Assembly (NCBI GenBank): GCA_902786975.1
Contig: CADAES010000005.1
Span: 17,530 to 81,529 of the forward strand
Reading direction: 5' to 3'
Origin: an uncultured Ruminococcus sp.
GTDB taxonomy: Bacteria; Bacillota; Clostridia; Oscillospirales; Ruminococcaceae
Length of the DNA stretch: 64,000 bases
Below are positions 32,522-52,550 of the stretch, one piece after another (the first letter of the stretch is position 1; every line of letters starts with the position of its first letter). The translations under genes were made by a program, and so were the position numbers. The notes under the pieces were generated by a model. It did not search any database. It saw nothing but the letters and a program-made list of their open reading frames with translations, and was not told where the DNA came from.

Positions 32522-33148
32522 TCAGTCGTTGTTTTTCATTTTCAGTCTTGTTGCTTTGATGACCTTCAGACGTGAAAATTCCTCTCGGTCTTTTTCATCG
32601 AGTGAATCTGTGATGTATTTCACAATGTTCTGATTTCTCGGGATAATGATGTTCTGCAGGGCGTTTGCACGGCGCTGGGTCTTGCGTATCGCAACACACA
32701 GCCTGTATATCCCCGTTTCGACCTCGGCAAGCACGGCGGTCATCTCCTTCACCTTTTCAAAGGCGATGTAAGCCCTGTCCAGCGAGGAGTTCGTCCTTGC
32801 AAAGCCGTAGTATATCTTTGTCGGCTGTTTTTCAAGCGTTACCGTGGGAAGCTCAACGCCCATAACGCTCTGTGAGTTTATGCTTATACCGTTCTCGATA
32901 GGCACACACTGTGCAAACGGAGTGACGACGCCCAGCGAGATATTTGCCTGCTGAAGCGCCTTGTAAGCCTCGGAGTAGGTGCCCTCAATGGATGTACGCA
33001 GCATCTGCGCCTTGTCAACGAGCTTCATCAGCTCACGAATAAGGATATTTCGTTTTCTGTCAAGCAGGTCGTAGCCCAGCGTTGCGAGCTGCAAAGCCTT
33101 TTTTGACAGCATCAGATTGCCCTTGGTAGGGAATACCTGCTGCTCCAT
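32522..33148 (-). CDS. V-type ATP synthase subunit D
   Basis: The 208-residue central-stalk subunit is almost entirely alpha-helical. The N-terminal PTKGNLMLSKKALQLATLGYDLLDRKRNIL and the C-terminal RTQRRANALQN-type helix (CVAIRKTQRRANALQNIII) are the family marks. ATG 33148 has AAAGGCGGTGA upstream; the open frame above it is heptamer-repeat sequence. It is separated from subunit B by 343 bp holding a heptamer array and repeat R1, whereas all other genes of the operon are closely spaced. Confidence 0.93.
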   Translation of the reverse strand: MEQQVFPTKGNLMLSKKALQLATLGYDLLDRKRNILIRELMKLVDKAQMLRTSIEGTYSEAYKALQQANISLGVVTPFAQCVPIENGISINSQSVMGVELPTVTLEKQPTKIYYGFARTNSSLDRAYIAFEKVKEMTAVLAEVETGIYRLCVAIRKTQRRANALQNIIIPRNQNIVKYITDSLDEKDREEFSRLKVIKATRLKMKNND

Positions 33149-33160
33149 TGTGTCACCGCC

Positions 33161-33216
33161 TTTTAGATGTAAGATGTAAGAGGTAAGAAGCAAGATTTAG
33201 ATGTAAGATGTAAGAG
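33161..33216 (+). repeat. Heptamer array H3
   Basis: TTTTAGAT followed by GTAAGAT, GTAAGAG, GTAAGAA, GCAAGAT, then TTAGAT, GTAAGAT, GTAAGAG, inside the V-ATPase operon just upstream of subunit D. Confidence 0.85.
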
Positions 33217-33257
33217 AACGTACATAGTTCTGTTATTCTCACAGTGTTAGCCTTTGC

Positions 33258-33489
33258 TTGAAGAATAACCGAGGGTGTTCTTCTGGAAAGAAATCTCTCT
33301 GAACTCTCTCGGGTATCTCTCAGTTATTTTTCGTTATTGGGGTTGTAAACCCAAATAACGAAAAATCATTAAGAGGTTTCTGAAATGGGGATAAGCGACC
33401 TTACGGTCGCTTGCGAGGATATTCAACGAATATCCTCGGGGGCTAAAATGGCGAAGCCATTTTTGGCTTCTTCTAAAAGAGTTCCCTCC
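33258..33489 (-). repeat. Structured repeat R1, copy A
   Basis: Read on the minus strand it starts at the subunit B stop. Order: AACTCTTTT; hairpin AAAATGGC-TTC-GCCATTTT; hairpin CGAGGATATTC-GTT-GAATATCCTCG; hairpin AGCGACC-GTAA-GGTCGCT; CAGAAACCTCTTAATG; long stem ATTTTTCGTTATT...AATAACGAAAAAT; then AACTGAG...CTCGGTT closing a last arm. Copies B and C share the framework with different stem sequences. Confidence 0.85.
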
Positions 33490-33491
33490 GA

Positions 33492-49650: not shown

Positions 49651-50196
49651 ATGTCAAAATTCGTATGTTCGGTATGCGGTTATATCTATGAGGGCGAGCA
49701 GCCCCCCGAGAAGTGCCCACAGTGCGGCGTTCCGGGTTCAAAGTTCAACAAGGTCGAGGAAGAGAAGATAATGTGGGCTGACGAGCACAAGCTCGGCTCT
49801 GCTCAGGGTCTTGACGAGGAGATAGTTCAGGGTCTGCGTGACAACTTCAACGGTGAGTGCAGCGAGGTAGGTATGTATCTTGCTATGGCGAGAGTGGCTT
49901 ACAGAGAGGGCTACCCCGAGGTAGGAATGTACTATGAAAAGGCTGCTTTCGAGGAGGCAGAGCACGCTGCCAAGTTCGCAGAGCTGCTCGGCGAGGTCGT
50001 TACACCGTCCACAAAGAAGAACCTCGAGCTTAGATATATGGCTGAGAACGGTGCCTGCGAGGGCAAGATGAAAATTGCTAAAAAGGCTAAGGAGCTCGGA
50101 TACGACGCTATCCACGATACCGTTCACGAAATGGCTAAGGACGAAGCAAGACATGGCTGTGCCTTCAAAGGTCTGCTCGATAGATATTTCAAGTAA
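49651..50196 (+). CDS. Reverse rubrerythrin (NADH peroxidase-type)
   Basis: The 181-residue protein carries its rubredoxin domain at the N-terminus ([20 protein letters not shown], residues 5-24) and the ferritin-like di-iron domain after it: [35 protein letters not shown] and [15 protein letters not shown]. This order is reversed relative to classical rubrerythrin and matches the oxygen- and peroxide-reducing reverse rubrerythrins of clostridia, which are strongly induced by oxygen. The site is GGGAGG, from a perfect sigma-A promoter. R1 copy B begins 9 nt after its stop. NADH dependence is inferred from the family. Confidence 0.95.
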
Positions 50197-50204
50197 TGTT
50201 ATTG

Positions 50205-50436
50205 AGGGGAACTCTTTTGGAAGAAGCGTAACACGTGGTAACGGTTACTCTGTTCCCCCGAGGATACCCAACGGGTATCCTCGCCAGCGACCGCAGGTCG
50301 CTGACCAAACATCCCCTCAGAAACCTCTTAATGATTTTTCGATATCAGGAGACAAGCCCCTGATATCGAAAAATGAGCAGGAAATTTCCAAGAGAGACTG
50401 TGAGGAATTATTCTCTTAGAAGAACTGTCCTCAGCA
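50205..50436 (+). repeat. Structured repeat R1, copy B
   Basis: Order: GAACTCTTTTGGAAGAAG; hairpin GTAAC...GTTAC; hairpin CGAGGATACCC-AAC-GGGTATCCTCG; hairpin AGCGACC-GCA-GGTCGCT; CAGAAACCTCTTAATG; stem ATTTTTCGATATCAGG...CCTGATATCGAAAAAT; AAGAGAGACTG; AGAAGAACTGTCCTCAG. Compared with copy A, two stem pairs in the second hairpin changed from T-A to C-G on both sides. Confidence 0.88.
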
Positions 50437-50462
50437 GCACAGCTTAAATATCCATTCAACTG

Positions 50463-50487
50463 ACCGGTCGAAATGACCGGTTTTTTT
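50463..50487 (+). terminator. Terminator after R1 copy B
   Basis: ACCGGTC-GAAAT-GACCGGT followed by seven T. It would end the rubrerythrin transcript beyond R1. Confidence 0.88.
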
Positions 50488-50594
50488 GTGCCTGTTGCAT
50501 ACAATAAAGCGTTTCATTTTGTGCAAAGCTACAAACTTAAAAATGTTTTGCACAGTTTCGGGCTTCTCAATCGTTATATATAAGAGCAGAGATA

Positions 50595-50623
50595 TTGACA
50601 TATTTTTGCTCGGGCAGTATAAT
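50595..50623 (+). promoter_or_regulatory. Promoter of the small membrane-anchored protein gene
   Basis: TTGACA (50595-50600), 17 bp, TATAAT (50618-50623), 29 bp before the start codon. Confidence 0.88.
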
Positions 50624-50651
50624 ACAGAACAAGGAAAGGGCGGGAGCGCTG

Positions 50652-51248
50652 ATGAGCGAGAGAACAAAGAACATAATAGCGGCTGTATGTGTGTTTATCC
50701 TGTTGATACCGGTCGGCTTTATTGTATTTATCAATATCGTTTTTTATTCAGGATCAAGCCACGATACGATAAAGACCGTGCTCGGTGACAGATTTGGGGT
50801 AGACTATGACCATTACAAATGCGACAGCACGGTCACTTGTAAGGATTCCGATCTGAATTGGAAATGCGGCGGAAGAATAAGCGAGGGCGATTTTATACCG
50901 CTGGCGTACACCGATTCGCTGACGGTATATGAATTAAAATCAAGTTTTATTTTCAATGACGGAAGCGGTTTTAAGATATTTGACGATAAGACCATTGATG
51001 CTCACCCCGAGGTCGCCGAGATAGTGAAGGGAAACCTGCTGTCCGATTACAGCAATTTTACAAGCAATGCAGGATTTTTTCTGAAAAGCAGCAAGTACAA
51101 AAATGAGACCGAGCAGATGATAGAAAAGCTCAAGCAGAAAAAATACGACGAACTGGAAGAATACGGTCTGACCGAAGAGGTCATCAATGACGGGACGACA
51201 GTTGAACTTTTAGAATATGAAATGTCACACCCGAGGTACGATCGTTGA
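50652..51248 (+). CDS. Uncharacterised membrane-anchored extracytoplasmic protein
   Basis: A 198-residue protein of a family I do not recognise. One N-terminal transmembrane helix (IIAAVCVFILLIPVGFIVFI, about residues 7-26) leads to a polar, probably extracytoplasmic domain of about 170 residues with two nearby cysteines (KCDSTVTCKD) and a Glu/Lys-rich helical end. There is no lipobox. ATG 50652 is chosen because the longer frame begins inside the -35 box. It has its own promoter and is followed, after 90 bp, by the antiporter gene with a separate promoter. Confidence 0.7.
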   Translation: MSERTKNIIAAVCVFILLIPVGFIVFINIVFYSGSSHDTIKTVLGDRFGVDYDHYKCDSTVTCKDSDLNWKCGGRISEGDFIPLAYTDSLTVYELKSSFIFNDGSGFKIFDDKTIDAHPEVAEIVKGNLLSDYSNFTSNAGFFLKSSKYKNETEQMIEKLKQKKYDELEEYGLTEEVINDGTTVELLEYEMSHPRYDR

Positions 51249-51265
51249 CTTTGCGCATATTTCTA

Positions 51266-51294
51266 TTGACTTTTACTGCGGATAGGGATATAAT
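51266..51294 (+). promoter_or_regulatory. Promoter of the Ca2+/Na+ antiporter gene
   Basis: TTGACT (51266-51271), 17 bp, TATAAT (51289-51294). Confidence 0.85.
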
Positions 51295-51339
51295 ATCCTT
51301 GTTCGCAGTTTTTGCGTAAGAAAGGAAAGACAAAACAAA

Positions 51340-52320
51340 ATGATGTGGGTAGGTATCTATGCCGCACTTGCGGTATGCGTTGTATTTTTATCTATCAAGC
51401 TGGCAAACTATGTTGACCTCATCGACAAAAAGACAGACCTGTCGGGAGCGTTCATAGGTGGTGTTATACTTGCCGCAGTAACCAGTCTGCCCGAGCTTTT
51501 CACCTCTATCTCGGCGGTGCTTTTCGTAAAGCAGCCTGACCTGGTAATGGGTAACATCCTCGGAAGCAACCTGTTCAATATGTGTATTTTCGGCGGTGCT
51601 GCACTTATTGCTGCCAAGTCGCTTTGCAAGTCTACTATCGGCAACAGCCACCTCAAAACGACGGTCATCACGTTCGTTATGTTCGCTATAATGCTGCTGC
51701 CCGTTGTATTCAAAAAAGACTACACGGTAGTCGGGATAAGCGTATATTCTATTATCCTGCTTGTGCTTTACGCTTGCTCTATCAAGTTTATGGCGGGCGA
51801 CAGTGCCGAAAGCGAGGGCGAGGACACCAGCGACCTTACGCTCAAACAGATAATCATCAGATTTATCATAATGGCTGTGCTGCTGGTAACAGCGTCTATC
51901 TTCATCACCGTCGCAGCTGACCACCTCTCCGAAGAATTCAACCTCGGCAAGACCGTCGGCGGTGCGCTGTTCCTCGGTGTAGCTACCTCGCTGCCTGAGC
52001 TTACCTCGTCTATCGCACTTATCCGCAAGGGCAACTTCAACGCCTGCGCAGGAAATGTTATGGGCAGCGGTGTGTTCAATTTCTGCATAATCTCCGTGGC
52101 AGATATCCTCTACAGAGGCGGCTCTGTCTATATCTCAAACGACAAGTCAAGCTCGTATCTCAATATCTTCGGTCTCGCTGCAACAGCTGTCGTGGGCGCA
52201 ATACTCATAATGAAACAGCGTAAAAAAGACAGCGAAAACGCAGGACTCAAGCTTTTCTATCGCCTCGGCGGACTGTGTATCCTCGGCTGCTATGCCGCAT
52301 TCTTGATCCTCTCAAACTGA
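51340..52320 (+). CDS. CaCA-family sodium/calcium antiporter
   Basis: The 326-residue protein has ten predicted membrane helices in two inverted halves. Each half carries an alpha-repeat: GGVILAAVTSLPELFTSISA with GNILGSNLFNM (about residues 40-85), and FLGVATSLPELTSSIALIRK with GNVMGSGVFNF (about 205-250). The glutamates of the SLPE motifs are the ion ligands. It exchanges Na+ for Ca2+ or a similar cation; direction and ion are inferred. It is monocistronic, with R1 copy C starting 25 nt after its stop. Confidence 0.92.
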   Translation: MMWVGIYAALAVCVVFLSIKLANYVDLIDKKTDLSGAFIGGVILAAVTSLPELFTSISAVLFVKQPDLVMGNILGSNLFNMCIFGGAALIAAKSLCKSTIGNSHLKTTVITFVMFAIMLLPVVFKKDYTVVGISVYSIILLVLYACSIKFMAGDSAESEGEDTSDLTLKQIIIRFIIMAVLLVTASIFITVAADHLSEEFNLGKTVGGALFLGVATSLPELTSSIALIRKGNFNACAGNVMGSGVFNFCIISVADILYRGGSVYISNDKSSSYLNIFGLAATAVVGAILIMKQRKKDSENAGLKLFYRLGGLCILGCYAAFLILSN

Positions 52321-52344
52321 TCGTTATATGTTCGGTAAATAATT

Positions 52345-52506
52345 GGGGAAAACTCTTTTGGAGAAGAGTTTTCCCCAAACCCTTTTCAGAAACCTTTTAA
52401 TGATTTTTGTAGAATAGGGCTTGAAAGCCCTATTCTACAAAAATAACTGAGAGATATCCAAGAGAGTTCAGGAAGATTCTTTTCAGAAGAATTATCCTCA
52501 GTTATC
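52345..52506 (+). repeat. Structured repeat R1, copy C (short form)
   Basis: A single hairpin, GGGGAAAACTC...GAGTTTTCCCC, replaces the three 5' hairpins of copies A and B. The 3' part is kept: CAGAAACCTTTTAATG; stem ATTTTTGTAGAATAGGGCT...AGCCCTATTCTACAAAAAT; AACTGAG...CTCAGTT closing arm. The stem sequence is unrelated to those in A and B beyond ATTTTT/AAAAAT. Confidence 0.88.
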
Positions 52507-52550
52507 GGTCGATATGTCACAGCAAGAGATCTGACTAAGCGGGGCAAAAG

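What the first reader, a model, noticed from the sequence alone, without database searches (positions are those of the whole stretch)
50205..50436. R1: a repeated intergenic RNA-like element with covarying stems, always after a stop codon
Three copies (33258-33489 minus, 50205-50436 plus, 52345-52506 plus) share fixed single-stranded words (CAGAAACCTCTTAATG; AAGAGAG; AGAAGAA) around hairpins whose sequences differ but stay complementary. The main stem has ATTTTT/AAAAAT ends, yet the inner arms are unrelated: CGTTATT, CGATATCAGG and GTAGAATAGGGCT, each with its own perfect complement. In the second hairpin of copies A and B two pairs changed on both sides (ATTC/GAAT versus ACCC/GGGT). All three copies begin 2-25 nt after a stop codon, in the sense direction of the upstream gene (atpB, rubrerythrin, antiporter). 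This suggests selection for RNA structure at mRNA 3' ends, or a mobile element with that insertion preference. I know no family that matches.
Basis: seen in the sequence. Interest (0 to 1): 0.85.

Follow-up and report, generated by a model that had tools for sequence, protein, structure and literature searches.

The report
Hairpin-swapping mobile repeats in Ruminococcus
The three structured repeats are copies of a short, non-coding, palindromic mobile DNA element found dozens of times per genome in some Ruminococcus; its hairpins appear to be replaced or kept matched at the DNA level, so matching stems here do not by themselves prove a working RNA.

Summary
In detail: three copies with conserved words and hairpins that differ in sequence yet stay complementary. 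A covariance model finds 39 distinct places in this genome and matches 17 of 25 genomes of the genus, 0 of 16 others. The element is mobile: for 13 copies, relatives lacked it in 36 of 50 orthologous comparisons and had it in 10. In one relative the copies are TA-flanked units with terminal inverted repeats; 368-bp units at four sites are 88-99.5% identical, and one insertion site has a single TA in three relatives that lack it. In R. albus-like genomes many copies sit inside terminator-like dyads. 'Always after a stop codon' does not generalise: 23 of 34 copies have a same-strand gene on the left. Covariation is strong, but G-U wobbles are not favoured (14 against 57 A-C), orthologous copies differ in the central hairpin in 9 of 10 readable pairs, and homologous loops occur in both orientations. 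This points to DNA-level arm correction and cassette exchange rather than RNA selection. Best reading: an orphan MITE family, undescribed as far as my searches show, with an exchangeable multi-hairpin interior. No IS630-type transposase was found; the mobiliser is unknown.

The parts
33258..33491 (-). Copy A, long form (first hairpin replaced by a chain of hairpin modules), between V-ATPase subunit B and D genes on the same strand
   Evidence: (R1 113.8 bits at 33268-33392); no R1 at this place in 4 of 4 relatives compared, two of which (G009, G004) carry a different insert there
33326..33366 (-). Copy A central hairpin H2 (ATTTTTCGTTATTTGGG..CCCCAATAACGAAAAAT)
   Evidence: read directly; helix counted
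33367..33382 (-). Copy A core word CAGAAACCTCTTAATG
50205..50436 (+). Copy B, long form, after a rubrerythrin gene
   Evidence: (99.8 bits); same site occupied in G009 with a different central hairpin
50318..50333 (+). Copy B core word
50334..50374 (+). Copy B central hairpin H2 (ATTTTTCGATATCAGG..CCTGATATCGAAAAAT)
52320..52342 (+). Copy C left outer arm (partial P1)
   Evidence: pairs with the right outer arm in the predicted fold
52343..52378 (+). Copy C first hairpin H1 in its short form (TTGGGGAAAACTCTTTTGGAGAAGAGTTTTCCCCAA)
   Evidence: read; folds as a hairpin on the minus strand, pairs with H3 instead in the plus-strand minimum
52387..52402 (+). Copy C core word CAGAAACCTTTTAATG
52403..52444 (+). 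Copy C central hairpin H2
   Evidence: (114.4 bits)
52470..52498 (+). Copy C third hairpin H3
   Evidence: read; hairpin on the minus strand
52502..52518 (+). Copy C right outer arm (partial P1)

Best explanation
R1 is a family of non-autonomous palindromic mobile elements (MITE type) of the genus Ruminococcus. A complete copy starts and ends at a TA. It has long terminal inverted repeats (outer arms, P1) and inside them a first hairpin H1, a central hairpin H2 and a third hairpin H3; H1 and H3 are inverted relatives of each other. Shown: multi-copy, confined to one genus among the genomes searched, presence/absence at orthologous sites, discrete TA-flanked units, a single TA at one empty site in three relatives, and in R. 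albus-like genomes frequent position within a terminator-like dyad. Inferred: a transposase acting in trans, now missing or not recognised, moved it by TA-targeted insertion. Covariation of the stems is best explained by DNA events in the palindrome (template-switch correction of one arm by the other, loop inversion) and by exchange of whole hairpin cassettes between copies through the conserved words. The words would stay conserved because they flank the exchanged hairpins and form part of the terminal repeat. The window copies are old or truncated members without intact outer ends.
For: 39 places at E up to 1 in the own genome, 35 at E up to 0.01; 17 of 25 genus genomes and 0 of 16 others. 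Orthologous sites: 10 occupied, 36 without R1, 3 with an H1-like hairpin only, 1 contig end, of 50 comparisons for 13 of 14 copies; all 10 occupied sites have the own orientation. Units TAAATCAGAATTT...AAATTCTGATTTA: 368 bp at four sites (L383, L388, L392, L393), pairwise identity 88-99.5%, each with one R1 core; 486 bp at two sites, 94% alike, each with two R1 cores. The empty site of L374 aligns through one TA in L442, L443 and L444. Flank complementarity in R. albus-like genomes: at 40-75 nt outside H1 matched mean 12.6 against mismatched 5.5, 19 of 33 above the 99th percentile; at 50-85 nt 10 of 33. Orthologous copies with a different H2: 9 of 10 readable pairs, copy B included; one of the nine (L050/L326) differs only in part. 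Loop inversion: 12 inverted against 13 same-orientation pairs among 13 distinct loops more than 75% alike. Wobble test: 14 GU against 57 AC in 80 stems, 12 against 27 distinct contexts. Modules differ at one shared site: L010 long, G009 L342 short.
Against: No transposase partner found: DDE_3 (PF13358) above cut-off in 0 of 25 genus genomes, and no copy with an internal transposase gene was seen. The three window copies lack intact terminal repeats and a demonstrable TA duplication. The TA duplication rests on one site compared with three relatives at 70-77% identity; a second comparison (L368 against L445) did not resolve it. Different H2 hairpins at one site could also come from independent insertions at a preferred site: left junctions of the L019 orthologues differ. 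Homogenisation was inferred from patterns, not observed between strains. Stem and loop counts treat related copies as separate; the 13 loops fall into a few homology groups.
Confidence: 0.65

Rival explanations
1. A cis-acting structured RNA (terminator or 3'-end stabiliser) whose stems are kept by selection at the RNA level and which spreads because it is useful.
For: Strong covariation; strong predicted folding of copy C on both strands, z -8.64 and -7.46, and of a full R. albus-like element, z -17.35; in R. albus-like genomes the elements lie in terminator-like dyads, with A-runs on both sides in 13 of 19 G002 copies.
Against: Copy A and the L010 copy lie between same-strand genes that are close neighbours in G006. 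11 of 34 copies have an opposite-strand gene on the left. GU cells are fewer than AC cells on the sense strand of the central stem, although this would fit selection on the other strand. Central hairpins differ at the same site between relatives in 9 of 10 readable pairs.
Confidence: 0.17
2. A single-strand-folding mobile element moved by a hairpin-recognising recombinase (IS200/IS605 Y1 type, or an attC-like process), where structure rather than sequence is the recognition signal.
For: Structure conserved with variable sequence; position inside palindromes in R. albus-like genomes.
Against: Clear terminal inverted repeats with TA at both ends are not typical of IS200/IS605 (recalled). Y1_Tnp was not found in 3 of the 11 genomes that carry R1 (G001, G006, G010; completeness 85, 91 and 70).
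Confidence: 0.13
3. A trans-acting small RNA or self-cleaving RNA present in many copies.
For: Conserved words between variable stems recall ribozyme cores (impression only).
Against: No Rfam match at gathering thresholds. The word next to the stem covaries with its partner in 65 of 85 copies. Copies in G008 are discrete TA-bounded DNA units, and modules differ between orthologous copies.
Confidence: 0.05

Closest known systems
Bacterial MITEs, in particular TA-ended ones such as Correia/NEMIS (PMC2229807, passages seen; the table row for Correia/NEMIS shows TIR, TSD and terminal TA; the ERIC row was cut off in what I saw)
   Same: Short, intergenic, without a transposase gene, terminal inverted repeats, TA at the ends, transcripts predicted to fold strongly
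   Different: About 300-530 bp with outer arms against about 100-200 bp in that paper; several hairpins inside the repeats; central hairpin different in most copies
BOX / RUP / SPRITE elements of Streptococcus pneumoniae (PMC10969869, passages seen; 'Ruminococcus' and 'Clostridi' have 0 occurrences in its main text)
   Same: Multi-copy intergenic elements that cluster, insert into one another or look like terminators; BOX modularity is recalled
   Different: No sequence relation tested; here outer arms give TA-bounded units in G008
REP palindromes (PMC3733652, search listing and start of abstract only)
   Same: Multi-copy extragenic palindromes
   Different: REPs are 20-40 bp by that abstract; R1 is far larger and bounded by terminal repeats
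Template-switch evolution of hairpins (PMC8794818, outline with abstract seen; PMC8604942, start of abstract in a search listing)
   Same: Multi-base compensatory change, arm homogenisation and spacer inversion as mutation patterns
   Different: Described there for RNA genes and coding genes; here it would act on a mobile repeat, together with cassette exchange between copies

Membership tests
MITE | Short, multi-copy and without a transposase gene | tested here: met
   39 places; R1-containing units of 368-529 bp in G008; no ORF of 80 aa or more lies wholly inside copies A, B or C
MITE | Terminal inverted repeats | tested here: met
   Met in G008 and G022 copies; partial in window copy C, absent on the left of copy A
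MITE | Target-site duplication | tested here: inconclusive
   TA at both ends of most paired units and one TA at the empty site of one insertion in three relatives; a second site did not resolve; not shown for the window copies
MITE | Mobility (presence/absence at orthologous sites) | tested here: met
   36 without R1, 10 occupied of 50 comparisons
IS630 / Tc1-mariner MITE | TA target duplication | tested here: inconclusive
   As above
IS630 / Tc1-mariner MITE | A DDE_3 transposase with the same terminal repeats in the genome or relatives | tested here: not met
   0 of 25 genus genomes above the PF13358 cut-off; two sub-threshold matches only
IS200/IS605-derived palindromic element | Y1_Tnp present wherever the element is | tested here: not met
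   Not found in 3 of 11 R1-carrying genomes of that call; those assemblies are incomplete
Intrinsic terminator | GC-rich stem followed at once by a U-run, after a gene end | tested here: not met
   Not met for window copies (read); met by the flanks of many R. albus-like copies
Rfam RNA family | Score at or above a family's gathering threshold | tested here: not met
   Only a tRNA in the window; none in seven loci; below-threshold matches are mostly microRNA-like stem matches

The most novel reading that the evidence does not exclude
R1 is a mobile element built to carry exchangeable hairpins: the conserved words act as recombination joints, and hairpin cassettes are swapped among dozens of copies, inverted, and kept perfectly paired by a dedicated or hijacked recombination process, possibly acting on folded single strands that target the loops of terminator hairpins. 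This would be a new mode of mobile-element evolution in bacteria, with an unknown enzyme.
Probability: 0.15. Interest if true: 0.8.

Novelty: new variant of a known kind. Interest (0 to 1): 0.5.

Why it matters
It adds a large repeat family, undescribed as far as my searches show, to a genus of fibre-degrading gut bacteria. It may also be a counter-example to 'covarying stems prove a functional RNA': here paired changes occur in a mobile palindrome, with loop inversion and different hairpins at shared sites. RNA discovery pipelines that rank candidates by covariation would score such elements highly. Position inside terminator dyads in R. albus-like genomes also gives a testable case of how terminators shelter mobile DNA.

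Tried and rejected
Rejected: a known RNA family. An intrinsic terminator as the identity of the window copies. Strict sense-strand 3'-UTR placement. A phage or plasmid vehicle: one R. albus-like copy found no match in the plasmid or phage collections (the window's own type was not tried there), and one viral-contig pattern hit scored only 22.3 bits with R1. Three pattern hits in distant genomes (L116, L145, L155) scored 20.7-26.1 bits over short stretches and are taken as chance. A 970-bp pair of ends in L399 encloses a membrane-protein-like ORF, not a transposase (identity judged by eye). Y1_Tnp and DDE_3 did not give a partner; open frames in L458 and L459 did not look like a transposase (by eye, not searched). 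Antisense R1 hits overlapping a copy come from the dyad symmetry of the element and were not counted.

Limits. In one search only 150 of 595 first-look candidates were scored and only 87 per genome, so counts are lower bounds. The helix count used 19 of the 23 pattern loci (L015, L016, L022 and L023 left out as truncated, spurious or cut). The context table used 34 of 39 places and simple ORF calls. The orthologue test used 14 own copies, of which L015 gave no relative; 'empty' there means no R1 core within about 620 bases, so another insert can be present, as for copy A in G009 and G004. The wobble test used 80 stems with distinct 5' arms out of 98 copies collected; 5 of the 98 lacked a recognised H1. 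For other helices it gave 2 GU against 4 AC (H1, 20 copies) and 145 GU against 153 AC with 96 other mismatches (outer arms, 33 R. albus-like copies), that is, no asymmetry. Loops were parsed in 14 of 42 oriented R. albus-like elements. In one search one of 11 pairs (L330) could not be read at a contig end. Terminator-like flanks were judged by eye. Literature: seven paper searches listed no paper whose title or abstract start describes this element; no bioRxiv preprints and few subscription papers are held.

Full report
Observation. The three copies are real and lie where stated. Copy A is on the minus strand between V-ATPase B and D genes, copy B follows a rubrerythrin gene, copy C follows a Na/Ca-exchanger-type gene and faces an Rrf2-type regulator gene. 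No Rfam family reaches its threshold there; below-threshold hits are mostly long-stem matches to microRNA families.

Family. The core word occurs at 23 places with up to 2 mismatches in the own genome, one of them (L022) a chance match in coding sequence by eye. A covariance model (R1) built from 19 copies finds 68 hits at E up to 1, which I count as 39 distinct places (35 at E up to 0.01), the rest being antisense shadows of the same copies. In 41 genomes it matches 17, all among the 25 of the same genus, with none in 16 genomes of other genera; 8 of the 25 have no match. A scan of genome contigs for a core pattern found 59 stretches, 56 in records titled Ruminococcus, Clostridiales or Clostridia and three elsewhere; those three score only 20.7-26.1 bits with R1. 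Contigs of the relative G008 have the same lengths as contigs of Ruminococcus sp. FC2018. G022 has a 3,685,408-base contig, which I recall as the size of the R. albus 7 chromosome; that name comes from no call, and 'R. albus-like' below rests on it.

Anatomy. Short forms have a hairpin H1, a pyrimidine-rich word, a central hairpin H2, a purine-rich word and a hairpin H3. Long forms replace H1 by a chain of hairpin modules. In R. albus-like genomes the same plan is clearer: H1 and H3 are inverted relatives of each other, and outer arms form long terminal inverted repeats. The triplet before H2 goes with a fixed triplet after it in 65 of 85 distinct copies, so the words are in part an interrupted continuation of the helix. 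Copy C folds on the plus strand as one near-continuous rod in which H1 pairs with H3 (z -8.64) and on the minus strand with separate H1, H2 and H3 (z -7.46). A full R. albus-like copy has z -17.35.

Mobility. For 14 own copies I searched flanks in six relatives. The compact table gives 50 comparisons for 13 copies: 10 occupied, 36 without R1, 3 with an H1-like hairpin only, 1 at a contig end. All 10 occupied sites carry the element in the own orientation, which suggests shared ancestral insertions. Copy A is absent in 4 of 4 relatives; in G006 the two ATPase genes are 36 bp apart, in G016 a simple repeat tract lies between them, and in G009 and G004 a different insert does. The site of copy C carries a plain terminator after the exchanger gene in G016, G012, G008, G004 and G020, followed in G004 and G020 by an R1-like fragment; G006 has an extra ORF before such a terminator, and G009 has two R1 copies there.

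Ends. In G008 copies are bounded by TAAATCAGAATTT and its complement, with unrelated flanks. The 368-bp units at four sites are 88-99.5% identical and hold one R1 core each; the 486-bp units at two sites are 94% alike and hold two R1 cores in opposite orientation. The joined flanks of one insertion (L374, a 529-bp unit with one R1 core) align through a single TA in three relatives at 70-77% identity; a second site (L368) did not align cleanly at the junction. R. albus-like copies are also bounded by TA in many cases (TA-AGGGC...GCCCT-TA, by eye). Other elements in the same genomes share the AATCAGAATTT ends but have different interiors. The window copies lack intact ends, so the duplication is not shown for them.

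Target. In R. albus-like genomes the flanks of many copies are complementary to each other, often with A-runs outside, as if the element had entered the loop of a terminator. At 40-75 nt outside H1 the matched left-right score is 12.6 against 5.5 for mismatched pairs, with 19 of 33 above the 99th percentile; at 45-80 nt 15 of 33, at 50-85 nt 10 of 33, and at 60-95 nt 3 of 33. A-runs on both sides are seen in 13 of 19 G002 copies. For one G022 site (L208), three of the seven orthologous loci, those in G002, G017 and G014, have a plain terminator before the same next gene (by eye). In the own genome the picture is looser: the left neighbour is on the element's strand in 23 of 34 copies and the right neighbour in 19 of 34.

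Why the stems covary. Covariation is far above shuffles and slid controls. Four results argue that this is mainly a DNA effect. First, among 80 distinct central stems G-U cells number 14 and A-C cells 57 (12 and 27 distinct contexts), so sense-strand wobble is not favoured. Selection on the other strand would also give this, related copies inflate the counts, and the outer arms of R. albus-like copies show no asymmetry (145 against 153). Second, homologous loops of R. albus-like copies occur in both orientations: 12 inverted and 13 same-orientation pairs above 75% identity among 13 distinct loops. Third, orthologous copies at one site have different H2 hairpins in 9 of 10 readable pairs, one of them (L050/L326) only in part, while L010/L342 is identical; for copy B neighbouring modules are identical in G009 while H2 differs. 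Independent insertions at one site are an alternative here. Fourth, the left and right outer arms of one copy resemble each other more than arms of different copies (5-45 nt: 14.9 against 7.8), although only 1 of 33 exceeded the 99th percentile there, probably because subfamilies share arms. Template switching is a published mechanism for such changes (PMC8794818, outline with abstract; PMC8604942, start of abstract in a search listing).

Mobiliser. DDE_3 (IS630/Tc1 type) is above cut-off in 0 of 25 genus genomes. Y1_Tnp is present in 15 of 25 genomes but was not found in three R1 carriers. The enzyme is unknown.

Verdict. A mobile, TA-bounded, palindromic, non-autonomous element family of Ruminococcus, closest to bacterial MITEs with TA ends (PMC2229807 and PMC10969869, passages seen), with an unusual exchangeable multi-hairpin interior. 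RNA function is possible at single sites but is not needed to explain the covariation.

Noticed in passing
window 49651-52320; L222, L223, L224, L132: Rubrerythrin and exchanger genes are convergent in G016, G006 and G004, but in tandem with copies B and C behind them in the own genome and in G009; an inversion with R1 copies near its ends is possible.
   Followed up: partly
window 33140-33230; L339: A simple TCTTACATCTTACCTC-like repeat tract lies between copy A and the ATPase D gene and at the same place in G016; a similar tract follows the L008 copy.
   Followed up: no
L343, L361: At the copy A site G009 and G004 carry a different, module-rich insert of a few hundred bases instead of R1, so this operon gap is reused by several repeat families.
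   Followed up: no
L379, L391, L382: Other TIR elements (178, 174 and 571 bp) share the AATCAGAATTT ends with R1 units but have no R1 core in the one checked (L382) and different interiors by eye, which suggests one mobiliser for several families.
   Followed up: partly
L399 638-1608: A 970-bp stretch in G008 with R1-type ends encloses an ORF that looks like a multi-pass membrane protein (288 aa); chance or a captured gene.
   Followed up: no
L327, L329: At the L013 site two relatives carry a terminator-like hairpin with a T-run that resembles R1's first hairpin H1; either a remnant or a possible source of H1.
   Followed up: no
L286-L290, L263; starts of many G012 and G016 contigs: Contigs often end inside or beside these elements, so copy numbers in draft genomes are probably underestimates.
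   Followed up: no
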